The notes beneath the pieces are model-generated. The model was not told where the DNA came from. It saw nothing but the letters and a program-made list of their open reading frames with translations, and did no database searches. A stretch of 64,000 nt of DNA from Mesorhizobium loti (lineage in GTDB: Bacteria; Pseudomonadota; Alphaproteobacteria; Rhizobiales; Rhizobiaceae). The stretch's first letter is position 1. Every line of letters begins with the position of its first letter. Positions 48,974 through 61,022 of the stretch are shown here, piece by piece. The stretch spans positions 2,147,501 to 2,211,500 of the forward strand of contig NZ_CP033334.1 in assembly GCF_013170705.1 (NCBI RefSeq), in the 5' to 3' direction. The translations under genes and the position numbers were made by a program.

Positions 48974-49744
48974 CTACTCAATCAGACCGAGCCGCAGCGC
49001 CTTGGCGACCGCCTGGTTGCGGTTGACGGCGTTGAGCTTCTGGGTCGACTGGGTCAGATACTGATTGGCTGTGTGCACGGACAGCTTCAGGAGCCGCGCG
49101 ATCTCCTCGCTGGTGTTGCCGTTGGCGGTCAGCTTCAGGCACTCCAACTCGCGCTTTGAGATGGCACGCATCCTGCCGGTGTCACCTGGACGGATGCGGG
49201 CGACCGCGGCGAACAGGGAAAAGCAGCGGGCGTGGATCTCGTAGAGTGCATCCTGCGGCAGCGCGATCTCCGACCCCAGGAAGACGACAAGGCCGCACTG
49301 ACCGCGATCGGCATGGACGGGAAAGGCGATGCCGCTGGTGCCGGGCGCCAGCGGCGCCATCTGCTCGGTCCAGGCGAGATTGCCGAACGTCTCGGTCATC
49401 GCGGCGACGCCATCATCCGTCCACCAGCGTGGCTCCGTCGAGTTGTGGGTGTGGCGCACGATCTCCTCGCCATTGGCGCCCGAGATAAACTTCGTCGCCA
49501 CGGCAATGCCGGGATAGTCGGAATCGAAACACGGGACCAGCCGTGCGCGTTCCGGCGACGGGCTGACGAAGAACAGGCCGAAGGCCGAGGCATTGATGTC
49601 GACCGCGATCCACCGGCAGCGGCGCACGGCATCGGGAATGGTGACGGCATGATGTGTTTCGGAGCCGAGCGAGAAGGCGCCGAAGGGGCTGCGTTGATCG
49701 TTGAAGATCGCCTCGGCGGCGTCCTTGATGTCGGCCTGTTTCAA
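48974..49744 (-). CDS. visR: LuxR-type motility master regulator VisR
   Basis: The 256-residue protein has a C-terminal LuxR helix-turn-helix (ISKRELECLKLTANGNTSEE and IARLLKLSVHTANQYLTQST) and an N-terminal sensor-like region with no recognisable acyl-homoserine-lactone motif. In Sinorhizobium VisN and VisR form a heterodimer that activates rem and so all later flagellar genes. It overlaps visN by four bases, and its end converges on the flhB operon. The pair arrangement and location identify it. Confidence 0.88.
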   Translation of the reverse strand: MKQADIKDAAEAIFNDQRSPFGAFSLGSETHHAVTIPDAVRRCRWIAVDINASAFGLFFVSPSPERARLVPCFDSDYPGIAVATKFISGANGEEIVRHTHNSTEPRWWTDDGVAAMTETFGNLAWTEQMAPLAPGTSGIAFPVHADRGQCGLVVFLGSEIALPQDALYEIHARCFSLFAAVARIRPGDTGRMRAISKRELECLKLTANGNTSEEIARLLKLSVHTANQYLTQSTQKLNAVNRNQAVAKALRLGLIE

Positions 49745-50451
49745 ATGATGCCACTCCTGATCGCCGTGGCGATGGCCATCGCGCGGTTGCTGGCCGCGAA
49801 TTTCTGGATGGCGTGGGTGATGTAGCTGTTGACGGTGTTGGAGGAGACGCCAAGGATGACCGCCACTTCATCGGTGGTCTTGCCTTCCGAAACCCAGAAC
49901 AGGCATTCGCGCTCACGATCCGACAGCGGATCCTGCATGGCCGCGGCGGCAATCAGCTGCGGAATATGCGAGAGCGCGTAGCAGCATTTCAATTGCGCCT
50001 TCATCAGCGCCGGCTGGTCGATCTGGCCGGTCGTCGCCGCCGAGAACAGGGCAAACAGGCGCTGGCGGCCGACATTCAGCCTGAGCGAATAGATCTCGGC
50101 ATGGCCGAGCACGTCGAGGAGACGGGCCTCTTCGCCGGAGACCAGCCCGCCGACGTCTGGCGCCTCCGCCGCCACCAGCGGTCTGGGCCGGATGCCGGGC
50201 GCGACGGTAAGCGCGCCTTGGGCAAGGCCGGCGATCAGCCGCTTGCCGATCAGTTCGATGGCGTCGAAGATCCAATTGGAGGAGACGATGCGCGCGTCGT
50301 TGCGGTCCTGGTCGTGGACGATGGCAACCAGCATGTAGCTGTCGGCGCCGATCTCGGCGGTCAACTCCATGAAGAAGCTGGTCAGATCACCGCGCGACGC
50401 CAGGCGCGAGCCCAAAGTGTCGGATTGAAGAGGCGCGGCGGGACTGCTCAT
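49741..50451 (-). CDS. visN: LuxR-type motility master regulator VisN
   Basis: The protein has 236 residues from the ATG at 50451; an in-frame GTG at 50541 would add 30 residues and neither start has a strong ribosome site. The C-terminal helix-turn-helix reads LSDRERECLFWVSEGKTTDE, then VAVILGVSSNTVNSYITHAI. The N-terminal region contains MELTAEIGADSYMLVAIVHD, resembling the autoinducer-type sensor fold. It is the upstream partner of visR. In Sinorhizobium fliF precedes visN, but here polyamine genes do. Confidence 0.88.
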   Translation of the reverse strand: MSSPAAPLQSDTLGSRLASRGDLTSFFMELTAEIGADSYMLVAIVHDQDRNDARIVSSNWIFDAIELIGKRLIAGLAQGALTVAPGIRPRPLVAAEAPDVGGLVSGEEARLLDVLGHAEIYSLRLNVGRQRLFALFSAATTGQIDQPALMKAQLKCCYALSHIPQLIAAAAMQDPLSDRERECLFWVSEGKTTDEVAVILGVSSNTVNSYITHAIQKFAASNRAMAIATAIRSGII

Positions 50452-50787
50452 CTGTTGCTTTTGGCCGGAATCGTTTCTGATGTCCGGATGCTGGAGAGCC
50501 AGCCGCCGAACCCGAAAACGCGTTACTTTTACGAGACACACACGAGGCGCGGGGTCGCGCCCAACCAGACGGAATCCATTCAGGGAACGCGAAGCCGTCC
50601 GCGTCTGGCGCCGGAAGATTCCGGAACGTGAGACTTTGGGTGGTCGCCGCGCCCCCCGAGGACCGGCTGATTCGGGTCTAATCTACCCGCAGATGAATCT
50701 GACATCAAACGCGATTTGACAAAATCGAATCCGATGGACTCAGGCGCGACTCAGGAAGCCATTTTTGCTAATTTCGAGGGTGTGAAA

Positions 50788-50898: not shown

Positions 50899-51930
50899 TT
50901 ACCGATCCTCGAAACCGGTCAGTACGCCGACGGCATTGATGCCGATCTCCTCGACGGCATAGCCGCCTTCCTGGACGAACAGCGTCGGCAGGCCGAGCTT
51001 TGCGATGCGGCGGCCGATCTTGGGATAGTCGGCGCTCTTCAGCTTGAACTGGCTGATCGGGTCCTTCTCGAAGGTGTCGACGCCAAGTGAGACGACGACG
51101 ATGTCGGGCGCGTAGGCGGCGAGCCTGGCGCAGGCATCCTCCAGCGAGGCGTTCCATGCGTCCCAGTTGGTGCCGAACGGCATGGGATAGTTGATGTTGA
51201 AGCCTTCGCCGGCGCCCGCGCCGCGTTCGTCGGCATGGCCGAGGAAGAATGGATATTCGACCATCGGGTCGCCATGCAGGTTGAGGACCTGCACGTCGGC
51301 GCGGTCGTAGAAGATCTCCTGCGTGCCGTTGCCATGGTGGTAGTCAACGTCGAGGATGGAGACGCGGGCTGCGCCCTGGTCGAGGAACCATTGAGCGGCG
51401 ACGGCGGCGTTGTTGATGTAGCAATAGCCGCCCATGAAGCCGGCGCCGGCATGGTGGCCGGGCGGGCGGCAGAGCGCGAAGGCCGACCTTTCGCCGCCCT
51501 TGACCAGGCCGGCCGCGGTCAGCGCCACGTCGTAGGAGGACTTGATCGCCGCCCATGTGCCTTCGACGAAGGTGGCGCCGCCGTCGAACGAATAGTATCC
51601 GAGCAGGGCGTCGATGCGCTTTGGCGGCACGTCGCCGCGCAGGCCGCGCGTCGGCCAGGTGAACGGCATCGCCGAACCCTGGAAGCCGGATTCCACCCAT
51701 TGCGGCCAGACCGTCGGCAGGAAGTCGATGTAGTCAGCCCTGTGGACGCGCTTGGCGGCGGCAAGGTCGTGCTCGAGCGGCAGGACGATCGGACCGAGCT
51801 TCTCGCTTTCAACCCGCGCCTTGATGAATTCGGCCCGCGAGGGCTTTTCGAAACCCGGCACGATGGCCGATGTGACCAGTTCCATCTGGCCGGCATGGCC
51901 GGCATGAAGCGGCGAATAGACAGTCTTCAT
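50899..51930 (-). CDS. Acetylpolyamine amidohydrolase (class II histone-deacetylase family)
   Basis: The protein has 343 residues from the ATG at 51930, which has GAGAGG upstream. It would remove acetyl groups from acetylated polyamines such as N-acetylputrescine, using zinc. The active site is complete: PPGHH at about 156-160, zinc ligands Asp196 and His198 in LDVDYHHGNG, Asp285 in LGVDTFEKD, and the catalytic Tyr324 in EGGYAV. These positions are one off from the numbering I recall for Mycoplana ramosa APAH, and the length is the same. It is co-directional with the TetR gene 23 bases upstream. Confidence 0.88.
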   Translation of the reverse strand: MKTVYSPLHAGHAGQMELVTSAIVPGFEKPSRAEFIKARVESEKLGPIVLPLEHDLAAAKRVHRADYIDFLPTVWPQWVESGFQGSAMPFTWPTRGLRGDVPPKRIDALLGYYSFDGGATFVEGTWAAIKSSYDVALTAAGLVKGGERSAFALCRPPGHHAGAGFMGGYCYINNAAVAAQWFLDQGAARVSILDVDYHHGNGTQEIFYDRADVQVLNLHGDPMVEYPFFLGHADERGAGAGEGFNINYPMPFGTNWDAWNASLEDACARLAAYAPDIVVVSLGVDTFEKDPISQFKLKSADYPKIGRRIAKLGLPTLFVQEGGYAVEEIGINAVGVLTGFEDR

Positions 51931-51953
51931 GAAATTCCTCTCGAAATGCGAAA

Positions 51954-52607
51954 TCAGTCCAGGTTGAGATAGGGGTTCACCAGAGCCAGCCACATGGCTT
52001 CGACGTCGTCCTCGATGAGGTCGAATGTCCTGCGGTCTCTCTTCAGTCCGACCAGCCGGCAGGCATGCCCGACCTCCATCATCACCAGGCCGAGCCGTTT
52101 GGCGATCTTGTCCTCGAGAGCCGGATTCACATGCCGCAGCCAGGCGGCGTAAAGCGCGACGATCTGCTCGTCATATTCGTCCTGGATAGGCCTGAGATCG
52201 GCGTTGCCTGAAATGGCCTCGATCACCGGCATCAGCGTCGCGTTCTCGAGATAGATACTGGACGTGTCGATGAAGAGCTTGCGCACTTCGCGCCGGAATT
52301 CCTCGCGATTGGTGGGCCGCGGGACCTTGATGCGCTTCTCGATCACCTGGGGAAAGGAGGACAGCCAGCGCCGGGCGAGGTCCAGAAGAATGGCTTCCTT
52401 GTTGGGAAAGTATTGATAGACCGAACCGACCGACAGGCCCGCTCGCTGCGCTATGGCGAGCGTTGTCGGCGTCCTGGTTCCTTGCTCTCGCGTCAAGATC
52501 AGCGCCGCGTCGAGAATCCGGTCGACAACCTTGCTCGACCGTTGCTGCCGCGGCTGCTTGCGCGGCTCGAGCGCTATCCTGGTCTTGCGGTCGAGACTGC
52601 GCTTCAC
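51954..52607 (-). CDS. TetR family transcriptional regulator
   Basis: The protein has 217 residues when started at GTG 52607; an in-frame ATG at 52670 is an alternative and the exact start is uncertain. The N-terminal helix-turn-helix is clear: ILDAALILTREQGTRTPTTL, then AIAQRAGLSVGSVYQYFPNK, then EAILLDLARRW. The rest is an all-helical ligand domain. It is upstream of the acetylpolyamine amidohydrolase gene and divergent from the YtcJ-like amidohydrolase, so it probably controls both. Confidence 0.85.
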   Translation of the reverse strand: MKRSLDRKTRIALEPRKQPRQQRSSKVVDRILDAALILTREQGTRTPTTLAIAQRAGLSVGSVYQYFPNKEAILLDLARRWLSSFPQVIEKRIKVPRPTNREEFRREVRKLFIDTSSIYLENATLMPVIEAISGNADLRPIQDEYDEQIVALYAAWLRHVNPALEDKIAKRLGLVMMEVGHACRLVGLKRDRRTFDLIEDDVEAMWLALVNPYLNLD

Positions 52608-52865
52608 TGCTCGATGCCCTCGTTCCCCGCCTGGTCCCAACACAGGCGCGGGGTGCTGTCCACAATACATTCTAAATTCCGCATGTTGACAAACGCGAAT
52701 AATCAGTCGCATTCTTTATCCACGCTGTCCCAAGGGATAACAAGGGGAATTTCGAAGGCAGCGGACTGGCATCGTTTTTTGTTCCGTGGCGCCGCTCAGG
52801 TGGGTGGCCGGTCGTTGAGCGCAGGGTTGTCGGTCTCAGTCGGTCATCAAGAGCGCGGAGTCGCG
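52608..52865. promoter_or_regulatory. Divergent promoter region between tetR and the amidohydrolase gene
   Basis: The 258-base region separates two divergent genes. A TTGACA hexamer at 52686-52691 is a reasonable -35 element for the plus-strand gene, with CATTCT about 18 bases on as a weak -10. The segment is more AT-rich than its surroundings. No clear TetR palindrome was identified by eye. Confidence 0.35.
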
Positions 52866-54545
52866 ATGTCTGTCACGGGTGCGGGTCGCAATGCGGATCT
52901 GATCGTCATCAACGGTCGTGTGCTGACCATGGACGACGACAATCCCGCAGCCGAGGCCGTGGCCGTCAAGGACGGCGCCATCATCGCCATCGGCAGCCGT
53001 GCTGTGATCGAAGAATTCAAGGGATCGACCACCAAGGTGATCGACGCCAAGGGCGGTTCGGTCCTGCCCGGTTTCATCGAAGCCCACATGCATCTGTTCT
53101 CGGGAGGCGCCGAACTCGCGCATCTTCAGCTTGGCGGTGTCCACGGCTTCGAGGCGCTGCAGAAGGCGATCCGCGACTATGCATCGACAAAGCCCAATGC
53201 CCCGATGCTGGTCGGGCAGGGTGTCGACTATACGGTGCTCGGCAGCGAGCGGGTGACGCGCCACCATCTCGACGCCATTCTGCCCGATCGCCCGTTCTGC
53301 ATGGCTGCGCCCGATCATCATACGATGTGGGCCAACACCAAGGCGCTGGAGATGGCCGGCATCCTACATGGACGCGCGCTTGGTCCGGGCAATGAGATCG
53401 TCATGGGCGATGATGGCCTGGCGGCGGGCGAATTGCGCGAGGGCGAGGCCTTCGGGCCGGTGCTCGATCTTGCCGGCGAGGGCCGGGTGCGGCTGGGGCT
53501 GGCCACTGGCGGTGAGCCGGATCCGATGCCGTCGGCCGCCGAACGCGCCGCCGACCGCGACATCATGCGGCGCGGCCTCGCCTGGTGCGCGCGCCACGGC
53601 ATCACCTCCATCCAGAACATGGACGGCAATCTCTACCAGCTCGAACTGCTGGCCGAGATCGACGCCGAGGAGGGCTTGCCTTGCCGCGTGCAGATCCCCT
53701 TCCACTACAAGAATTTCATGACGCTCGACATGCTCGACAAGGCGTCCGCCATGGCCGAGCGCTACAGCAGCGAGTGGCTGTCGTCGGGCATGGTCAAGGT
53801 GTTCTATGACGGCGTGCTCGATTCCTGGACGGCCGTCATGGTCGAGCCCTACGCCGACCGTCCGGACTGGGTTGGCGAGCCGCTGTTCACGCCGCGGCAA
53901 TTCATCGATCTGGCCGTCGCCGTCGACAGGCGCGGGCTGCAGATCGCCGTCCACTCGATCGGCGATGGCGCGGTGCGTGCGGTGCTCGACGGCTACGAGG
54001 CGGCGCGGAAGGCCAATGGCAAGCGCGACAGCCGTCACCGCGTCGAACACATCGAGGTTACCACCACGGCTGACGTGCCGCGGTTTGCCGAACTCGGCGT
54101 CATCGCCTCGATGCAACCGCCGCATCCGCCCGGCGCGATGGATTTCCCGCTGGAGCCGACCGTGTCTCGCATCGGGCCGGCCCGCTGGCCGCTGAGCTAT
54201 GCCTGGCGAACCCTGAAGAACGCCGGCGCGCACGTCGTCTTCGCCTCGGATTGGCCGGTGTCGCCGATCGACCCGATCCTGGGCATTCAGGCGGCAGTGA
54301 TGCGCAAACCGTGGGCAGACAGCGATCCGGACCAGAGTTTTTCGCTGCGGGAATCGATCGCCGCCTACACGGTCGAGGGCGCCTATGCCGAATTCGCAGA
54401 GCATCGCAAAGGTGCGCTGAAATCAGGCTATATGGCCGATCTGGTGGTTCTGTCTGATGACATCGAGAAAACGGCGCCGGCCGACCTGCACAAGGTGCGC
54501 CCGGTGACGACGATCTGCGGTGGCAAGATCACCTATCAGGCCTGA
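52866..54545 (+). CDS. YtcJ-like amidohydrolase (amidohydrolase_3 family)
   Basis: The protein has 559 residues from the ATG at 52866, preceded by GCGGAG; the longer frame from 52413 runs through the tetR gene and is rejected. The metal-binding motif HMH lies in GFIEAHMHLFSGG, further ligands are likely in IAVHSIGDGAV and RVEHIEV, and the late aspartate lies in VFASDWPVSP. These enzymes hydrolyse amide or formyl bonds in small molecules; many are N-acyl or N-substituted formamide deformylase-like. The substrate is unknown. Its neighbourhood suggests an acylated amine. Confidence 0.82.
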   Translation: MSVTGAGRNADLIVINGRVLTMDDDNPAAEAVAVKDGAIIAIGSRAVIEEFKGSTTKVIDAKGGSVLPGFIEAHMHLFSGGAELAHLQLGGVHGFEALQKAIRDYASTKPNAPMLVGQGVDYTVLGSERVTRHHLDAILPDRPFCMAAPDHHTMWANTKALEMAGILHGRALGPGNEIVMGDDGLAAGELREGEAFGPVLDLAGEGRVRLGLATGGEPDPMPSAAERAADRDIMRRGLAWCARHGITSIQNMDGNLYQLELLAEIDAEEGLPCRVQIPFHYKNFMTLDMLDKASAMAERYSSEWLSSGMVKVFYDGVLDSWTAVMVEPYADRPDWVGEPLFTPRQFIDLAVAVDRRGLQIAVHSIGDGAVRAVLDGYEAARKANGKRDSRHRVEHIEVTTTADVPRFAELGVIASMQPPHPPGAMDFPLEPTVSRIGPARWPLSYAWRTLKNAGAHVVFASDWPVSPIDPILGIQAAVMRKPWADSDPDQSFSLRESIAAYTVEGAYAEFAEHRKGALKSGYMADLVVLSDDIEKTAPADLHKVRPVTTICGGKITYQA

Positions 54546-54683
54546 CATGGCATGAGGCTTGCTGGCTAAAGACGGACTGAACTGTGATTCAATGCCGGGC
54601 TTGCCAACCTACCGGCCGTGTGGTCACATCGAACAGGGGAACAGCTCCGCCGGCAAGAGCGGGGTCAACAGTGAGGCGTAATC

Positions 54684-55778
54684 GTGCCGGACAAACCGGA
54701 TCGGAATGCGATTGAAGTTGTAGACGTCAGCAAAATTTTCGGATCGGGTGAGGGGCAGGTGGCTGCCCTCGACAAGGTCTCGGTTTCCATTCGCGAGAAC
54801 GAGTTCTTCACGCTGCTGGGACCGTCCGGCTGCGGCAAGACCACCCTTTTGCGGCTGATTGCCGGCTTCGACTTTCCAACCGCCGGCGAGATCCTGCTCT
54901 ACGGTCAGGACATCGCGCCGCTGCCGCCGTTCAAGCGGCCGGTCAACACCGTCTTCCAGTCCTATGCGCTGTTCCCGCACATGACCGTGGCCGACAATAT
55001 CGGCTTCGGCCTGGAGATGCTCGGCAAGCCCAAGGCCGAGATCAAGGCGCGCGTCGCCGAGATGCTCAAGCTGGTCAAGATGGAAGCGCTGGCGGGCCGT
55101 CGCACGGCCCAGATTTCCGGTGGCCAGCAGCAGCGCGTGGCACTGGCACGGGCGCTCGCGCCGCAGCCGAAAGTGCTGTTGCTCGACGAACCGCTCTCCG
55201 CGCTCGACTACAAGCTGCGCAAGGAGATGCAGATCGAGTTGAAGCGGCTGCAGCACGAGACCGGCATCACCTTCATCTTCGTCACCCATGACCAGGAAGA
55301 AGCGCTGACCATGTCGGACCGCATCGCGGTGATGTCGTCGGGCAAGATCCTGCAGGTCGGCTCGCCCTGGGACATATACGACAAGCCTGCGGAACGCTTC
55401 GTGGCCGACTTCATCGGCGAAACCAATTTCCTCACCGCCGCCATATCGGGCGCCGGCAATGGCAAGGCACGCGCGACGCTCAAGTCCGGCACGACCATCG
55501 AGGCCACCGTTGCCGAAGGGTTCCAGCCGAAGGACAACGCCACCGTGGTGGTGCGGCCCGAGCACGCCAAGCTCACCAAGGACAAGGGCGACCTGTCGGG
55601 CACGGTCGAAAACATCGTCTATTTCGGCACCGACACGCATATCCACGTCCAGCTCGACAGCGGCGATCCCTTCACCGTGCGCCAGCAGAACACGCGCAGC
55701 GCCGGCTGCGGTTTCGAGCGCGGCGACAAGGTCGGCATCCTGATCGGCAACGACGCCGCGCAAGTGCTGAGGGACTGA
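54684..55778 (+). CDS. potA: Spermidine/putrescine-type ABC transporter ATPase PotA
   Basis: This 364-residue ATPase starts at GTG with GAGG upstream. Walker [10 protein letters not shown] lies at about 46-54, the Q-loop is [20 protein letters not shown], the signature is ISGGQQQR, Walker B is [13 protein letters not shown], and the switch histidine is in VTHDQEEAL. The [14 protein letters not shown] pattern is typical of true PotA. A TOBE domain ends the protein. It is first of a potA-potB-potC-potD operon. Polyamine specificity is likely but not proven. Confidence 0.9.
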
Positions 55779-56698
55779 TGGCCACCGCGGAAGAAGTCGC
55801 CAAGGCCGCCGAACGGCGTGATGTCCGTGACCGCTGGCTTTTGTCGGCGCCGGCGCTGCTGGTCATCCTGCTCGCCGCCACCGGCCCGTTGCTGATCGTT
55901 CTCGTCTATTCGTTCCTGACGCCCGGCGCCTATGGCGACGTGAAATGGCAGTTCTCGTCCGACGCCTGGACATCGGTGTTCCTGGAACGCGATATTTTCG
56001 ACGACACGCTTTCACTGGCCGCGGCGCATGTCACCATCTTCTGGCGCTCGATCAAGCTTGCCATAGTGACGACACTGGCGACCTTGGCGCTCGGGTTCCC
56101 GACCGCCTATTTCATGGCGACGCGCAGCGAAAAGACTAGGGATCTCTGGCTGTTCCTGATCACCATCCCGTTCTGGACCAACTTGCTGATCCGTACCTTC
56201 GCCGTGCTGCAGATCATCCGCAACGAAGGCATCATCAACACCATTCTTTTGAAGCTCGGCATCATCTCGGCGCCGATCCAGATCCTCTATACCGACACAG
56301 CGATCCTGATCGGCATGGCGTATGTCTACCTGCCGCTGATGGTGCTGCCGATCTACGCCAGCATGGAGAAGCTCGACTTTCGCCTCGTCGAGGCGGGCTA
56401 TGATCTCTACGCGACACGCTTCAAGGTGCTGCGGAAGATCATTTTTCCGCTGGTCAAACCCGGCGTCATCGCCGGCTCCATCCTTGTCTTCATTCCAGCC
56501 CTCGGCGCTTATGTGACGCCGAGCGTGCTTGGCGGCGGCAAGAACATGATGCTGTCCAACCTGATCGAATTGCAGTTCGGGCAGGGTCGCAACTGGCCGC
56601 TTGGCTCGGCGCTTTCGATCACGGTGATGATCATCGTCATGGTGGCGCTGCTGGCCTATGTGCGCAATGCCGGCAAGTCGGGGGTGCGTCATGGCTAG
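55778..56698 (+). CDS. potB: Spermidine/putrescine-type ABC transporter permease PotB
   Basis: The 306-residue membrane protein has about six helices. The EAA-type loop is EAGYDLYATRFKVLRKIIFP, and the segment FPTAYFMATRSEKTRDLWLF, then LITIPFWTNLLIRTFA, is strongly characteristic of PotB. Its ATG overlaps the potA stop by one base, and its end overlaps potC by eight. Confidence 0.9.
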   Translation: MATAEEVAKAAERRDVRDRWLLSAPALLVILLAATGPLLIVLVYSFLTPGAYGDVKWQFSSDAWTSVFLERDIFDDTLSLAAAHVTIFWRSIKLAIVTTLATLALGFPTAYFMATRSEKTRDLWLFLITIPFWTNLLIRTFAVLQIIRNEGIINTILLKLGIISAPIQILYTDTAILIGMAYVYLPLMVLPIYASMEKLDFRLVEAGYDLYATRFKVLRKIIFPLVKPGVIAGSILVFIPALGAYVTPSVLGGGKNMMLSNLIELQFGQGRNWPLGSALSITVMIIVMVALLAYVRNAGKSGVRHG

Positions 56699-57491
56699 CA
56701 ACTTCTCCATCAAGCACCAGCCGGGCTTCACCGCGATCGCGGCGACATGTTTCGTCGTGCTCTACCTGCCGATCGTGGTGCTGGTGATCTATGCCTTCAA
56801 CGCTGCCACCTCGACCTCAGAATGGGGCGGCTTCTCGCTGAAGTGGTTCCAGTCGGCGTGCCAGAACACGCAGGTCATCGATGCAACGCTGCGCTCGTTC
56901 CAGATCGGCGCCATCGCGGCGGTGCTGTCGACGATCTTCGCCACCATGGCGGCGCTCGCCACCACGCGCACCGCCTCCTATCCCGGCCTTACCTTCAAAT
57001 ACGCGGCGATCAACCAGCCGCTGATGGTGCCCGAGATCGTCACTGGCGTGGCGCTGCTGATCTTCTTCTCGCGCATCAAGATATTCACCGGCTATTCCGG
57101 CATCGGCTACCTGGTCGCCGCGCATACGGCGTTCTGCATTCCGTTCGCCTATCTGCCGATCCGGGCGCGGCTGGAGAACATGGACCTGACGCTGGAGCGT
57201 GCCGCGGCCGATCTCTACGCAACGCCGTGGAAGACCTTCCGCCGCATCACGCTGCCGCTTTTGTGGCCGGGCATACTGGCCGGCCTGATGCTGGCCTTCG
57301 TCATCTCGCTCGACGACGTCGTCATCACCGAGTTCGTCAAATCGGGCGGCCAGGACACGCTGCCCACTTACATGCTCGGCCAGATCCGCCGCGGCATCAC
57401 ACCCGAGATCAACGCGATATCGACCGCTTTCCTGCTGCTTTCGGTCGCGATCGTCACGTTGTTTTTCTTTGTCAGCAGGAAACGAGACTGA
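56691..57491 (+). CDS. potC: Spermidine/putrescine-type ABC transporter permease PotC
   Basis: The protein has 266 residues from the ATG at 56691, eight bases inside the end of potB. VLYLPIVVLVIYAFNAATST followed by EWGGFSLKWFQS is the classic PotC N-terminus, and the EAA loop is ERAAADLYATPWKTFRRITL. It completes the channel with PotB. A short in-frame extension to 56658 is not needed. Confidence 0.9.
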   Translation: MASNFSIKHQPGFTAIAATCFVVLYLPIVVLVIYAFNAATSTSEWGGFSLKWFQSACQNTQVIDATLRSFQIGAIAAVLSTIFATMAALATTRTASYPGLTFKYAAINQPLMVPEIVTGVALLIFFSRIKIFTGYSGIGYLVAAHTAFCIPFAYLPIRARLENMDLTLERAAADLYATPWKTFRRITLPLLWPGILAGLMLAFVISLDDVVITEFVKSGGQDTLPTYMLGQIRRGITPEINAISTAFLLLSVAIVTLFFFVSRKRD

Positions 57492-57513
57492 ACCTGAAAT
57501 GGGAGTTAGAACG

Positions 57514-58548
57514 ATGAACTGGAAGACCACAGCGACCGCCATGGGGTTGGCGCTGCTCGCTTCGACGGGCCTCGCCCACGCCGATGGCGTGCTCAACATC
57601 TACAATTGGGGCAACTACACCAGCCCCGACGTGATCAAGAAGTTCGAGGACAAATACAACATCAAGGTGACCATCACCGACTACGATTCCAATGACACCG
57701 CGCTCGCCAAGGTCCGGCAGGGCGGCACCGGCTTCGACATCGCCGTGCCCTCGCAGACCTACGTGCCGATCTGGATCAAGGAAGGTCTCGTGCTCGAGAC
57801 CGATCCGGGCAAGATGGAGAATTTCAAGAACGTCGCTCCGGAATGGGCCAATCCTGAGTTCGATCCGGGCCGCAAATATTCCGTGCCATGGGCCTGGGGC
57901 ACGATCGGCGTCGTCGTCAACACCGATGCCTACAAGGGGCCGGCCAACACGTGGGGTATCGTCTTCAACACGCCCGACGAGCTGAAGGGCAAGGTCAACG
58001 TCGTTCCCGAGATGGGTGACGTGATCTTCGCGGCGATCAAATATGTCGGCGGCGAGCAGTGCACGGACGACAAGGCGGTGCTGAAGAAGGTGCGCGACCT
58101 CCTGGTGGCGGCCAAGCCGAACTGGATCGCGATGGAATACAACACCATCGAGAAGATGGGCGCCGGCGACTTCAAGGCCACCAGCGACTGGAACGGCTCG
58201 GCATTGCGCCAGCGTCTGGCCAACCCGGCCATCCACTACAACTATCCAAAGGAAGGCTTTGGCCTGTGGAGCGACAACGTCGTCGTTCTCAAGGAAGCCA
58301 AGAACGTCGAGAACGCCAAGCTGTTCCAGAACTTCATCATGGACCCGGAAAACGCGGCGGGCCTCTCGGCCTTCCACCGCTATGCCAACGCCATCACCGG
58401 CTCGGACAAGTACATGCCGGCAGACATGAAGGATGCGCCGGAAGTCGTCATTCCGGCCGACGCCAAGCCGCATGGCGAGTTCCAGAAGATGTGCGCTCCC
58501 GAAACGCAGGAACTCTATACCAAGATCTGGACCGAACTGCAGAAGTAA
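57514..58548 (+). CDS. potD: Spermidine/putrescine-type periplasmic binding protein PotD
   Basis: The protein has 344 residues from the ATG at 57514, with GGGAG upstream. A signal peptide (MGLALLASTGLAHA) precedes VLNIYNWGNYTSPDVIKKFE, a sequence typical of PotD/PotF. It captures the ligand in the periplasm. The gene is last of the transporter operon and ends in a strong terminator that begins 12 bases after the stop. Confidence 0.9.
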   Translation: MNWKTTATAMGLALLASTGLAHADGVLNIYNWGNYTSPDVIKKFEDKYNIKVTITDYDSNDTALAKVRQGGTGFDIAVPSQTYVPIWIKEGLVLETDPGKMENFKNVAPEWANPEFDPGRKYSVPWAWGTIGVVVNTDAYKGPANTWGIVFNTPDELKGKVNVVPEMGDVIFAAIKYVGGEQCTDDKAVLKKVRDLLVAAKPNWIAMEYNTIEKMGAGDFKATSDWNGSALRQRLANPAIHYNYPKEGFGLWSDNVVVLKEAKNVENAKLFQNFIMDPENAAGLSAFHRYANAITGSDKYMPADMKDAPEVVIPADAKPHGEFQKMCAPETQELYTKIWTELQK

Positions 58549-58560
58549 TCGCTGCATGAG

Positions 58561-58595
58561 AGACCCGGCGGTACCCGCCGGGTCTTTTTCTTTTC
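58561..58595 (+). terminator. Strong Rho-independent terminator after potD
   Basis: An 11-base-pair stem (AGACCCGGCGG, 58561-58571, with CCGCCGGGTCT, 58575-58585) closes on a 3-base loop and is followed by TTTTCTTTT. It ends only about 15 bases before the ATG of the next gene, so downstream expression needs read-through or a promoter overlapping the hairpin. Confidence 0.9.
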
Positions 58596-58610
58596 CGGGA
58601 ATAGCCTTTC

Positions 58611-59807
58611 ATGGACTCCTATCGCAACAGCGATCCGCGGCCGCCGATCATGCAGGGCTCGCCGCCCGCCATGGTGCCGCCGAAGCTCGACTGGGACCGG
58701 CCGCCATGGAACCGCTGGGCGTTCCAGCACATCCGCGAAATCCTGCCGACCGCCGAAGTCTGGCGCGGCAATGGCCATCGCCATCGTCTCGAACGCGCCG
58801 AGGTCGATCTCGACGGGCTGGCGGTCGAGGACAGCGAGGGCAAGCCGACAACGCTCGCCGGGCTGCTCGACGAGACCTATACGGACGGCTTCCTGGTGCT
58901 CAAGCACGGCAAGGTCGCCTATGAGCGCTATTTCAACGGCATGGACGAGCGCACGCTGCATCTGTCGCAGTCGATGGCCAAGTCCGTCACCGGCGCGGTG
59001 TTCGGCATACTGGCCGGACGCGGCCTGATCGACCCGGCGAGGCCCGTGACCGACTATTTGCCGGAACTCGCCGCCACCGGCTGGGCCGGGGCCAGCGTCC
59101 AGCATGTGCTCGACATGACGACGGGCGTGCGTTTTTCCGAGGAATACACCGACCGCTATTCCGATATCGGCCAGGTCGATGTCGCCACCGGCTGGAAGCC
59201 GGTGCCGCCAGGCAGCGATCCGGATTTCCGATGGCCCTCGCACATGTTCGAGCTTATCCTGGGCCTGAGGGACACGGTCCGCCCGCATGGCGCCGCATTT
59301 GAATACCGCTCCATCGAGACCGACGTGCTCGCCTTCATCATGGAGCGCGTGACCGGCAAGCGGCTGGCGCAGCTGGTTTCGGAAGAACTCTGGCAAAAGC
59401 TCGGTGCCGATGAAAGCGCCTGCTTCACCGTCGACAGCGCCGGCTATGCGCTCGCCGATGGCGGCTTCAACGCGACGCTGCGCGACTATGCCCGCTTCGG
59501 CCAGATGATCCTCGAAAATGGCGGCGGCATCGTGCCGGCCGGCTGGATCGAGACGACACGCAATGGCAAGCACGGGCCGGATTTCTCCGCCAGCCTGCCG
59601 GAAGGCAGCTATCGCAACCAGTTCTGGATCGAGGATCCCGGCTCGCGCGCACTGATGTGCCGGGGCGTGTTCGGGCAAATGATCCATATGGACTGGAACA
59701 CAGGAATGGTCGTGGTGAAGCTTTCGACCTGGCCGGATTTCAGCAATCTCGCCTATTCCACGGCGACGCTGAAGGCCGTGCACGCCATCGCCGCCGCGCT
59801 GCTCTGA
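58611..59807 (+). CDS. Serine hydrolase of the beta-lactamase fold, first tandem copy
   Basis: The 398-residue protein resembles class C beta-lactamases and 6-aminohexanoate-dimer hydrolases. The catalytic SxxK is SMAK at about 121-124, and the tyrosine element is YRS in FEYRSIETDVLAF. No signal peptide is seen, so it is probably cytoplasmic, which argues against a cell-wall or antibiotic role and for hydrolysis of a small amide or ester. It lies just after the potD terminator and shares clear similarity with the next gene (NRWAFQH here, NRWSFQN there). Confidence 0.82.
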   Translation: MDSYRNSDPRPPIMQGSPPAMVPPKLDWDRPPWNRWAFQHIREILPTAEVWRGNGHRHRLERAEVDLDGLAVEDSEGKPTTLAGLLDETYTDGFLVLKHGKVAYERYFNGMDERTLHLSQSMAKSVTGAVFGILAGRGLIDPARPVTDYLPELAATGWAGASVQHVLDMTTGVRFSEEYTDRYSDIGQVDVATGWKPVPPGSDPDFRWPSHMFELILGLRDTVRPHGAAFEYRSIETDVLAFIMERVTGKRLAQLVSEELWQKLGADESACFTVDSAGYALADGGFNATLRDYARFGQMILENGGGIVPAGWIETTRNGKHGPDFSASLPEGSYRNQFWIEDPGSRALMCRGVFGQMIHMDWNTGMVVVKLSTWPDFSNLAYSTATLKAVHAIAAALL

Positions 59808-59840
59808 ACCCCCACAAGAAACGACCTGGAAGGAAACGCC

Positions 59841-61022
59841 ATGACCGGCAAGACCGCGTTCGAGACCCGCTACGGCTTTCCCCGCAACGAGGTGCTGCTT
59901 TCCAACTGGCGCGTAAACCCGTTCAATCGATGGTCGTTCCAGAATCTGGGCGAACTGGTGCCGACAGCGCGCGTGGCCGCGGCGTCCGGCGGTGCCGAGG
60001 CACCCGCGCGCGATTTCGGTGTGTTGCTCGGTGAAAAGGTTTCGGTTGCCAGCGCTCCGGAGACGGTGGCGGACTTTCTCGTGCGCTCCAGCACCGATGC
60101 GCTGACGGTGATGAAGGGCGGAAAGGTGATCGGCGACTGGTTCGCGCCGCATATGGATTTCGGCGCCCGCCATATCATCTTCTCGATCAGCAAGTCGGTG
60201 ACCGCCATTATCGCCGGCATATTGGAAGGCGAGGGCGTGTTCGATCCGGAAGCGCCGGTGACGACCTACATCCCCGAAGCCACCGGCTCGGCCTATGGCG
60301 ATGCGAGTTGCCGGCATGTGCTCGACATGAGCGTCAGCCTCGATTTCGAGGAAGCCTATCTCGATCCGGAAAGCGCTTTCGCCCGCTACCGGCGCGCCAC
60401 GTTGTGGAATCCGGGCGGCGGCACGGAAAGCCTGCGCGAATTCATCCTGACCCTGCAGCGGCTGGCCGAGCCGCATGGCCAGACCTTCCGTTATCGCTCG
60501 CCCAATTCAGACCTGCTCGGCCTGTTGCTGGAACGGGCTTCCGGCCAGCGCTTCCCCGACTTGATGCGCGAGAAGCTGTGGCTGCCGCTTGGCGCCGTCA
60601 GCGAAGCCTCGATCGGCGTCGACATGGAAGGCACGGCGCGCACCGCCGGCGGTATTTCGGTGACGCCGCGCGACCTGGCGCGCGTCGGCGAAATGATGCG
60701 GCAAGGGGGCACCGCCAATGGTCGCCGCATCGTGTCCGAGACCTGGGTGCGCGACACGACAAGCACCGGCGGCAGTACGGAAGCCTGGCAGCGCGGCGCG
60801 ATGCTGCCGCTGTTCCCCAAGGGCCGTTACCGCAACAAATGGTACCAGACCGGACATGAGAATGGTGCCTATTGCGGCATCGGCATCCATGGCCAGTGGC
60901 TTTATATCGATCCCAGGACCGAAGTGGTGATCTCCAAGATGTCGTCGCAACCGGAGCCGGTCGATGACTCGCTTGATCTCGAGATCGTCGCCTTCTTCGA
61001 AGCGCTGAGCCGGATGATTTGA
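59841..61022 (+). CDS. Serine hydrolase of the beta-lactamase fold, second tandem copy
   Basis: This is a 393-residue paralog of the preceding gene. The SxxK motif is SISK at about 115-118, and the second motif is YRSPNSD, close to the family's YxN. Both proteins share the N-terminal block with PTA(E/R)V, the MDFGARHII/MDERTLHLS region and the CRHVLDM/VQHVLDM segment. An AAGGAAACG ribosome site precedes the start, 33 bases after the first copy. Two linked copies suggest two related amide substrates or a hetero-oligomer. Confidence 0.82.
   Translation: MTGKTAFETRYGFPRNEVLLSNWRVNPFNRWSFQNLGELVPTARVAAASGGAEAPARDFGVLLGEKVSVASAPETVADFLVRSSTDALTVMKGGKVIGDWFAPHMDFGARHIIFSISKSVTAIIAGILEGEGVFDPEAPVTTYIPEATGSAYGDASCRHVLDMSVSLDFEEAYLDPESAFARYRRATLWNPGGGTESLREFILTLQRLAEPHGQTFRYRSPNSDLLGLLLERASGQRFPDLMREKLWLPLGAVSEASIGVDMEGTARTAGGISVTPRDLARVGEMMRQGGTANGRRIVSETWVRDTTSTGGSTEAWQRGAMLPLFPKGRYRNKWYQTGHENGAYCGIGIHGQWLYIDPRTEVVISKMSSQPEPVDDSLDLEIVAFFEALSRMI

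What the first reader, a model, noticed from the sequence alone, without database searches (positions are those of the whole stretch)
50899..61022. Putative system for import and deacylation of N-acylated amines
An acetylpolyamine amidohydrolase with all catalytic residues, a TetR regulator, a YtcJ-like amidohydrolase, a full PotABCD transporter and two cytoplasmic serine hydrolases of the 6-aminohexanoate-dimer hydrolase type stand together. Three different amide-hydrolase folds beside one polyamine-type importer suggest uptake of acylated or conjugated polyamines (for example plant hydroxycinnamoyl amides or acetylpolyamines) followed by hydrolysis. I know of no described pathway with this set.
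Basis: inference. Interest (0 to 1): 0.7.

Follow-up and report, generated by a model that had tools for sequence, protein, structure and literature searches.

The report
Amine importer with several deacylating enzymes
A soil bacterium related to root-nodule symbionts carries, side by side, an importer of the polyamine type and four enzymes predicted to cut amide or ester bonds; relatives of these genes keep turning up together in other bacterial families, which suggests a real but undescribed route for taking up and breaking down acylated amines.

Summary
The window (a Mesorhizobium-like chromosome) holds acetylpolyamine amidohydrolase (APAH), TetR, a YtcJ-type amidohydrolase, potABCD and two NylB-like serine hydrolases (SH1, SH2). 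Of the 80 best SH1 loci kept by the search, 77 have all eight enzyme and importer genes in this order. That could be plain inheritance, so the telling evidence lies outside the genus: in the order sample, potD relatives lie within 10 kb of SH, APAH, AguB (N-carbamoylputrescine amidase) or YtcJ in 17, 15, 11 and 9 genomes, about 0.2 expected each. In other orders the set can form one run, potABCD-SH-SH-amidase-APAH. Best reading: import of N-acylated amines, then hydrolysis by enzymes matched to different acyl groups. Plant hydroxycinnamoyl amides remain speculation.
Unexpected: at this Mesorhizobium site potBCD exist as four discrete types (potD at least 86% identical within, 49-69% between), replaced repeatedly (16 changes on flank trees), usually together with YtcJ, independently of APAH and largely of SH1/SH2. 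The importer behaves as a swappable module between fixed hydrolases. No substrate is shown. Against a polyamine-only view: SH1 relatives on rhizobial plasmids sit beside a peptide-type importer, and a Pseudomonas relative of NylB is a methyl esterase.

The parts
50899..51930 (-). APAH: acetylpolyamine amidohydrolase, 343 aa, arginase/deacetylase fold
   Evidence: PF00850 E 1.9e-62; five best solved relatives all named acetylpolyamine amidohydrolase or aminohydrolase, 9gkz E 2e-131 first; H159, H160, D196, H198, D285, Y324, E17 and the PIS motif kept, D107 at the E106 site
51954..52685 (-). TetR-family regulator, start uncertain (ORF opens at 52712)
   Evidence: PF00440 E 6e-13; an ORF best matching it was found in 53 of 80 loci
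52866..54545 (+). YtcJ-type amidohydrolase (Amidohydro_3), 559 aa; usually exchanged with potBCD
   Evidence: PF07969 E 8e-123; distances follow potD, partial Spearman 0.71 given tex; group matches potD type in 69 of 74 loci
54684..55778 (+). potA, ATPase
   Evidence: TIGR01187 polyamine ABC ATP-binding subfamily 381 bits, cut-off 355.6
55778..56698 (+). potB, permease
   Evidence: best model PotB, 237 bits, below its equivalog cut-off of 348
56658..57491 (+). potC, permease
   Evidence: best model PotC, 198 bits, below its cut-off of 326
57511..58548 (+). potD, periplasmic binding protein, type A
   Evidence: best solved relatives are mostly polyamine-binding proteins; pocket string WGNYSTEDYWGWDQ against WTEYSYDESWGWDQ in E. 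coli PotD
58558..58588 (+). terminator-like hairpin, 14 pairs, between potD and SH1
   Evidence: the region as a whole has no excess of such sites: 6 found, 7.4 expected; a stem with at least 7 G-C pairs within 80 bases after potD in 68 of 70 type A, B and C loci but 0 of 4 type D, against 12 of 1480 shuffles; sequence differs by type
58611..59807 (+). SH1: NylB-like serine hydrolase, 398 aa
   Evidence: PF00144; 6-aminohexanoate-dimer hydrolase 1wyc E 4e-65; S121, K124, Y232, Y179, D190
59841..61022 (+). SH2: NylB-like serine hydrolase, 393 aa
   Evidence: PF00144; 6-aminohexanoate-dimer hydrolase 3vwl E 5e-75; S115, K118, Y218, Y173, and R184 at the NylB D181 site

Best explanation
A scavenging locus for N-substituted amines. 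PotD binds a cationic amine derivative in the periplasm and PotABC imports it (inferred from family and pocket). In the cytoplasm, hydrolases of unrelated folds remove the substituent according to its chemistry: APAH takes acetyl groups off di- and polyamines (inferred from close relatives with proven activity); SH1 and SH2 cut an amide or ester bond, SH1 holding an amine end (Asp at the NylB D181 site) and SH2 an acid end (Arg there); YtcJ takes another acyl type. The free amine enters ordinary polyamine or nitrogen metabolism. The TetR, where present, is the likely local regulator. In Mesorhizobium the cargo-determining part, potBCD with usually YtcJ and partly potA, and an amidase in some type B loci, is exchanged between fixed APAH and SH1-SH2 anchors, so different strains may import different members of the substrate class. 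Shown: gene set, its recurrence, residues, importer types and their repeated exchange. Inferred: substrates, order of steps, regulation.
For: Outside the genus, within 10 kb: potD-SH in 17 of 25 genomes with both, APAH-potD 15 of 37, AguB-potD 11 of 32, YtcJ-potD 9 of 24, APAH-AguB 12 of 30; random expectation 0.14-0.24 each (hits). 36 of 61 potD hits have at least one partner. Runs on one strand: L120 APAH-AguB-potABCD-SH1 with divergent YtcJ; L153 AguB-potABCD-amidase-APAH-SH; in other orders L161 potABCD-SH-SH-amidase-APAH, and L165 potC-potD-SH then APAH. AguB above cut-off in 3 of 3 ORFs tested. APAH residues: one pattern in 77 of 78 copies of the genus; the other has Glu at the E106 site. 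SH1 carries Y170 and D181 equivalents in 80 of 80, SH2 Arg at 181 in 79 of 79. PotD keeps W34, Y37, W229, W255, D257 and an acidic pair. The window's own genome has a second potD, 79% identical to type B, followed by an amidase and a TetR; in another genome of the genus such a pair lies near AguA and AguB.
Against: APAH distances do not follow potD within the genus (partial 0.01), so APAH and importer are not co-inherited there. APAH-SH (3 of 23), YtcJ-SH (3 of 20), YtcJ-AguB (2 of 18) and APAH-YtcJ (1 of 21) are rarely neighbours outside the genus. 25 of 61 potD hits have none of the four partners within 10 kb. SH1 relatives on plasmids sit with a peptide-type importer. PotD lacks the E36 acid (Asn in type A) and scores far below the PotD/PotF equivalog cut-offs (134 against 582, 137 against 636 bits). 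The window genome has no AguB match. Pocket differences between PotD types (5 of 14 sites A against C, 2 of 14 A against B) are no more frequent than in the rest of the protein (51% and 67% identity).
Confidence: 0.58

Rival explanations
1. The importer and the two serine hydrolases serve plant phenolic esters or amides (phenylpropanoid methyl ester type); APAH and TetR are a separate neighbouring unit.
For: In P. fluorescens a serine hydrolase whose nearest validated relatives are 6-aminohexanoate-dimer hydrolases is a phenylpropanoid methyl esterase; its cluster holds a 'polyamine ABC transporter substrate-binding protein' and a TetR (PMC12642758, passages). The amidase partner is nearest to an aryl acylamidase among solved structures.
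Against: In that paper's table the binding-protein mutant shows no fitness defect on the two esters (0.34 and 0.64). APAH and AguB neighbours of the importer are not explained. I did not identify most other ORFs of the fetched loci, so aromatic-pathway genes there are neither shown nor excluded. I did not have that enzyme's sequence to place it against SH1/SH2.
Confidence: 0.15
2. The pathway handles omega-amino-acid amides, lactam or peptide-like compounds (as nylon oligomers are handled), and polyamine deacetylation is incidental.
For: SH1 and SH2 are nearest to NylB. An amidase is a recurrent partner, and a more distant one (30-32% identical) also stands beside SH1 relatives and a peptide-type importer on plasmids. 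One locus has hydantoinase-type genes whose best models are caprolactamase subunits, though far below cut-off (L123). Caprolactam-grown P. jessenii induces spermidine/putrescine-type binding proteins (PMC6061476, passages).
Against: AguB and APAH are diamine-linked families and lie near the same importer in 11 and 15 genomes. The amidase is closer to aryl acylamidase and several GatA chains than to NylA. The passages read do not show that the P. jessenii binding proteins are needed.
Confidence: 0.16
3. Three independent units (APAH-TetR; YtcJ-potABCD; SH1-SH2) happen to adjoin; synteny in Mesorhizobium is only shared descent.
For: The flanking gene tex is conserved as well in nearly all loci. 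Distances of APAH do not follow potD. A hairpin separates potD and SH1 in most loci.
Against: Repeated association in other families and orders, with new orders and orientations.
Confidence: 0.11

Closest known systems
Acetylpolyamine utilisation by P. aeruginosa PA1409 and PA0321 (PMC4784309 passages; PMC11532494 abstract and two sections)
   Same: APAH of the same kind; growth on acetylputrescine and acetylcadaverine depends on them; both enzymes have the PIS motif like the window APAH
   Different: No serine hydrolases or YtcJ in the passages read. I recall, without a call, Pot-type genes beside these two APAH genes; the passages read do not mention them
E. coli PotABCD spermidine/putrescine importer
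   Same: Four-gene importer of the same gene order; 8 of 14 listed pocket residues
   Different: PotD pocket loses E36, swaps D168/E171 to E/D, Y85 to T, S211 to Y; far below the equivalog cut-offs
NylB 6-aminohexanoate-dimer hydrolase
   Same: Nearest solved relatives of SH1 and SH2; catalytic Ser-Lys-Tyr and Y170
   Different: SH2 has Arg at the D181 site; genomic setting with an importer; substrate untested
Pme phenylpropanoid methyl esterase of P. fluorescens (PMC12642758)
   Same: Serine hydrolase whose nearest validated relatives are NylB-type; near a polyamine-type binding protein and a TetR
   Different: Esterase on aromatic methyl esters; no APAH in the table rows read; sequence not compared
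AguA-AguB agmatine route
   Same: AguB lies within 10 kb of relatives of this potD in 11 genomes outside the genus; a potD-amidase pair lies near AguA and AguB in one genome of the genus
   Different: No AguB match in the window genome

Membership tests
Bacterial polyamine deacetylase (cluster 4 of PMC11532494) | Zinc ligands, His-His pair, EGGY Tyr, RPPGHH and PIS motifs | tested here: met
   H159, H160, D196, H198, D285, Y324, PIS; RPPGHH and EGGY in the translation
Bacterial polyamine deacetylase (cluster 4 of PMC11532494) | Acid at the E106 position of the specificity loop | tested here: met
   Asp107, as in most relatives aligned; Glu in M. ramosa; the paper reports His in PsApaH
Bacterial polyamine deacetylase (cluster 4 of PMC11532494) | Activity on acetylpolyamines, head-to-head dimer | not testable with these tools
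   needs protein
Polyamine ABC importer (Pot) | PotA subfamily model above curated cut-off | tested here: met
   TIGR01187 381 bits, cut-off 355.6
PotD or PotF equivalog | Curated equivalog cut-off of PotD or PotF | tested here: not met
   134 against 582 and 137 against 636 bits
Polyamine ABC importer (Pot) | Amine-binding pocket of E. coli PotD (residue list recalled) | tested here: inconclusive
   8 of 14 sites identical, 2 more acid-to-acid swaps, E36 lost
NylB 6-aminohexanoate-dimer hydrolase | Ser112, Lys115, Tyr215, Tyr170 and Asp181 (roles recalled), in SH1 | tested here: met
   all five in 80 of 80 copies at this locus; activity not testable here
NylB 6-aminohexanoate-dimer hydrolase | Asp181, in SH2 | tested here: not met
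   Arg in 79 of 79
Phenylpropanoid methyl esterase Pme | Sequence kinship to PFLU3311 and esterase activity | not tested
   sequence not at hand
YtcJ / Amidohydro_3 | Pfam family over the whole length | tested here: met
   PF07969, 1-472 of 472 positions; metal ligands not aligned

The most novel reading that the evidence does not exclude
Mesorhizobium keeps a 'plug-in' scavenging site: fixed general hydrolases (APAH, SH1, SH2) flank an exchangeable cargo module (potBCD, usually with its YtcJ, partly with potA, and with an amidase in some type B loci) of which four discrete types, each with relatives in other families, replace one another repeatedly at the same chromosomal place. It would be a catabolic counterpart of antigen or capsule loci, tuned to the acylated amines of different roots or soils, and a natural setting of NylB-like 'nylonase' relatives.
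Probability: 0.4. Interest if true: 0.72.

Novelty: new variant of a known kind. Interest (0 to 1): 0.52.

Why it matters
Amines in soil and around roots can occur acylated, and how bacteria take such compounds up is little described in what I found. The recurring association names a concrete importer and up to five unrelated hydrolase folds that can be assayed on one substrate panel. It offers a natural context for NylB-like hydrolases, whose native substrates are an open question (my recall). If the exchange of importer types is confirmed, it shows a bacterial genus swapping nutrient specificity at a fixed locus, and comparison of strains that differ mainly in this module would read out what each type imports.

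Tried and rejected
Considered and dropped: (1) chance adjacency, rejected. (2) Pure shared descent within the genus, not enough because. (3) SH1/SH2 as drug-inactivating beta-lactamases: class C models score 19-27 bits against cut-offs of 415-850. (4) Amidase partner as a NylA orthologue: NylA chains rank below aryl acylamidase and several GatA chains. (5) Enrichment of PotD pocket sites among type differences: not found. (6) Promoter scan: 1 site against 2.2 expected, uninformative. Paper searches without a hit; single hits: PMC6061476; unrelated by title; PMC12642758; PMC9397018, passages read, nothing on this gene set. Plant-amide search: 18 papers, 12 listed, none opened. Searches gave the deacylase papers.

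Limits of the counts. One search kept the best 80 of 207 relatives found; 76 of the 80 records name Mesorhizobium, four are unnamed relatives or MAGs; I speak of them together as the genus. In one search I pasted hits by hand from the printed tables, left out the seven genomes of the window's genus among the 249, and used for APAH 67 non-genus rows of 47% identity or more plus one 65% fragment at a contig end; weaker APAH rows were left out, and that table was itself cut. potD hits were those at E 1e-60 or better, SH 1e-40, YtcJ 1e-80, AguB 1e-80. The expectation assumes 5 Mb genomes and random places. In some searches and the hairpin count of 81 seven of the 80 loci were dropped: L012, L023, L024, L053, L080, L084 (short contigs) and L085 (two potD). 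Type cut-offs were chosen by me; the gap in potD (86% within, at most 69% between) does not depend on them. Results against a clean cassette: the YtcJ group fails to match the potD type in 5 of 74 loci (L039, L050, L061, L070, L079), among them all four of type D; potA groups (42, 23, 7, 2) match more loosely. Trees are quick ones with weak inner support; starred branches of the SH1 tree alone force at least 6 changes for type A. ORF calls in fetched loci are mechanical, starts are unsure, and many neighbouring ORFs were not identified. A second-locus potD is called 'followed by amidase'; a more distant Pot-type set (26-46% identical) lies next to it on the other strand, so it may not be an orphan.
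Full report
WHAT IS THERE. The window lies in a 6.87 Mb single-contig genome; 76 of the 80 closest SH1 loci in named records are from Mesorhizobium. Between a pair of LuxR-type regulator genes next to flagellar-type genes (my reading of the translations) and a Tex-like gene stand APAH and TetR on the minus strand, and YtcJ, potA, potB, potC, potD, SH1 and SH2 on the plus strand. APAH is nearest to solved acetylpolyamine amidohydrolases and keeps their metal ligands, catalytic residues and the PIS motif that PMC11532494 (abstract and two sections read) reports for bacterial polyamine deacetylases; it has Asp at the E106 site. SH1 and SH2 are nearest to NylB, with Ser-Lys-Tyr intact. SH1 has the NylB Tyr170 and Asp181 equivalents in 80 of 80 copies at this locus; SH2 has Tyr170 but Arg at 181 in 79 of 79. 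The roles of these NylB residues are recalled. A hairpin followed by T-rich sequence (58558-58588) separates potD from SH1. Within 80 bases after potD a stem with at least 7 G-C pairs is present in 33 of 34 type A, 11 of 11 type B and 24 of 25 type C loci, in 0 of 4 type D loci, and in 12 of 1480 shuffled stretches. Its sequence differs between types, which fits a terminator or mRNA stabiliser that travels with the importer genes; T runs are weak in part of the loci.

IS THE SET MORE THAN CHANCE. In the 80 loci YtcJ, potA, potB, potC, potD and SH1 are found in 80, SH2 in 79 (missing in L071), APAH in 78 as a whole ORF (L023 and L084 end at a contig edge), TetR in 53; 77 have all eight enzyme and importer genes in the window's order and strands, the other three lack one gene each. 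Tex is found beside them, whole or cut by a contig end, in 79 (not in L085), so this could be shared descent. Outside the genus I searched 249 genomes of the order, seven of them of the genus, with SH1, APAH, YtcJ, PotD and the AguB model. Within 10 kb: potD-SH in 17 of 25 genomes with both, APAH-potD 15 of 37, AguB-potD 11 of 32, YtcJ-potD 9 of 24, APAH-AguB 12 of 30, SH-AguB 5 of 21, APAH-SH 3 of 23, YtcJ-SH 3 of 20, YtcJ-AguB 2 of 18, APAH-YtcJ 1 of 21; the random expectation is 0.09-0.24. Of 61 potD hits 36 have at least one partner, in 33 of 47 genomes and 14 families. So the importer is the hub; the hydrolases associate mostly through it.

WHAT ELSE TRAVELS WITH IT. Neighbour reading found an amidase-signature enzyme near the importer or SH1 in L116-L119, L121-L125 and L129 (a fragment at the contig end in L124, in pieces in L125), between potD and SH1 in six loci of the genus (L041, L049, L056, L066, L069, L071, all type B) and as an interrupted copy in L038. 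AguB lies near it in L116, L120, L123 and L124; the three tested are above the N-carbamoylputrescine amidase cut-off. An SDR enzyme accompanies L116-L119 and L121. L120 reads APAH-AguB-potABCD-SH1 on one strand with YtcJ divergent. L153 reads AguB-potABCD-amidase-APAH-SH. In other orders of the class (7 of 289 genomes with SH1 at 1e-90, the window's own included; five read) L161 reads potABCD-SH-SH-amidase-APAH, L162 the same without a recognised APAH, L165 potC-potD-SH and then APAH; L163 has SH1, potA, APAH and AguB; L164 shows SH1 beside other ABC genes and none of the rest. The window's own genome has a second potD, 79% identical to type B, followed by an amidase and a TetR at G000:C1 about 4.795 Mb, next to a more distant Pot-type set on the other strand. 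In another genome of the genus (L170) such a pair lies 2.7 kb from agmatine deiminase and 6 kb from AguB, with a PotF-like gene between these two.

THE EXCHANGED MODULE. Pairwise comparison of 73 loci plus the window: potB, potC and potD fall into the same four groups of 34, 25, 11 and 4 loci, with identical membership; potD identity is 86-100% within groups and 49-69% between. YtcJ falls into 34, 28 and 12 and matches the potD type in 69 of 74 loci; the five exceptions include all four type D loci. potA groups are 42, 23, 7 and 2 and match more loosely. Partial rank correlations of distances given tex: potB-potD 0.92, YtcJ-potD 0.71, potA-potD 0.63, SH2-potD 0.35, SH1-potD 0.22, TetR-potD 0.17, APAH-potD 0.01. 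Trees of tex and of SH1 each need 16 changes of potD type where 3 is the least possible; two records named M. qingshengii differ in type. In the potD tree (quick method) type C groups with f23 and f11 proteins (starred), D with f13 and f23 (starred), A with f11, f50 and f41 (starred), B with a second copy of the genus and f14, f10, f24, f13 and f45 (support 94, unstarred), so the types are older than the genus or came from outside. YtcJ adjoins potA and mostly travels with the importer, while SH1 adjoins potD and mostly does not, so adjacency alone does not explain the pattern. Exchange of potBCD, usually with YtcJ, between fixed anchors is the simplest account; in some type B loci an amidase has come with it.

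WHAT IT BINDS. Against E. coli PotD (pocket residue list recalled) type A keeps W34, Y37, S83, W229, G231, W255, D257 and Q327, has E and D for D168 and E171, and differs at 35, 36 (Asn for Glu), 85 (Thr for Tyr) and 211. The types differ among themselves at 36, 85, 168, 171, 255 and 327. An amine-binding site is plausible and the types may prefer different cargo, but pocket sites do not differ more than the rest of the protein.

HOW IT PROBABLY WORKS. Import of acylated amines by PotABCD, deacetylation by APAH, hydrolysis of other amides or esters by SH1, SH2 and YtcJ, release of the free amine. The link between APAH and acetylputrescine or acetylcadaverine utilisation is experimental in P. 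aeruginosa (PMC4784309, passages). The serine hydrolases are the weak point: their family includes amide hydrolases (NylB), and a Pseudomonas enzyme nearest to NylB among validated ones is an esterase near a polyamine-type binding protein (PMC12642758, abstract, one section, passages), whose binding-protein mutant shows no defect in the table. On plasmids (45 records, all under 60% identity, mostly of rhizobia) the four loci that I read have SH1 relatives beside an amidase (30-32% identical to the L122 one) and another importer; in L158 its binding protein and ATPase match peptide-transport families PF00496 and PF08352. So an amidase plus SH can serve another importer.

NOVELTY. Each family is known; the combination with a Pot importer, its recurrence across families and orders, and the exchange of importer types were not found in print by my searches, which cover open-access papers only and none of which was aimed at the exchange itself. 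I rate it a new variant of a known kind.

Noticed in passing
window 48974-50541 (-): Two adjacent LuxR-type regulator genes (VisN/VisR-like by recall, no family search run) beside flagellar-type genes; present as left flank in many of the fetched loci of the genus.
   Followed up: no
L001, L002, L003, L005: Four further deacetylase-fold (PF00850) genes in the same genome; L003 holds a protein 43% identical to the window APAH.
   Followed up: no
L166 6668-9359 (G000:C1 about 4794667-4797358): A second potD (79% to type B) followed by an amidase and a TetR in the window's own genome; similar surroundings in three other genomes of the genus (L167, L168, L169); a more distant Pot-type set lies beside it.
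   Followed up: partly
L170 170-9941: AguB, a PotF-like binding protein and agmatine deiminase near a potD-amidase pair in another genome of the genus.
   Followed up: partly
L116-L119: Genes that I read, from memory of the families, as histidine-utilisation genes (HutI, HutU, HutF, HutC types) flank the cluster in genus g63.
   Followed up: no
L038 8925-9931: The amidase between potD and SH1 is interrupted (two partial frames).
   Followed up: no
L116 7694-9940, L121 9275-11411, L085, L135: Two potD copies in tandem within one cluster, 61-86% like the window's, suggesting one importer core with several binding proteins.
   Followed up: partly
L134 1069-8281: Second SH1-like gene (50%) beside a potD (73% to type B), with a class III aminotransferase about 3 kb away, in a genome of the genus.
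   Followed up: no
L123 14039-17872: Hydantoinase-type gene pair beside AguB and potABCD-SH1; best models are caprolactamase subunits but far below cut-off.
   Followed up: partly
L085: The only one of the 80 loci in which tex is not found downstream although the contig goes on.
   Followed up: no
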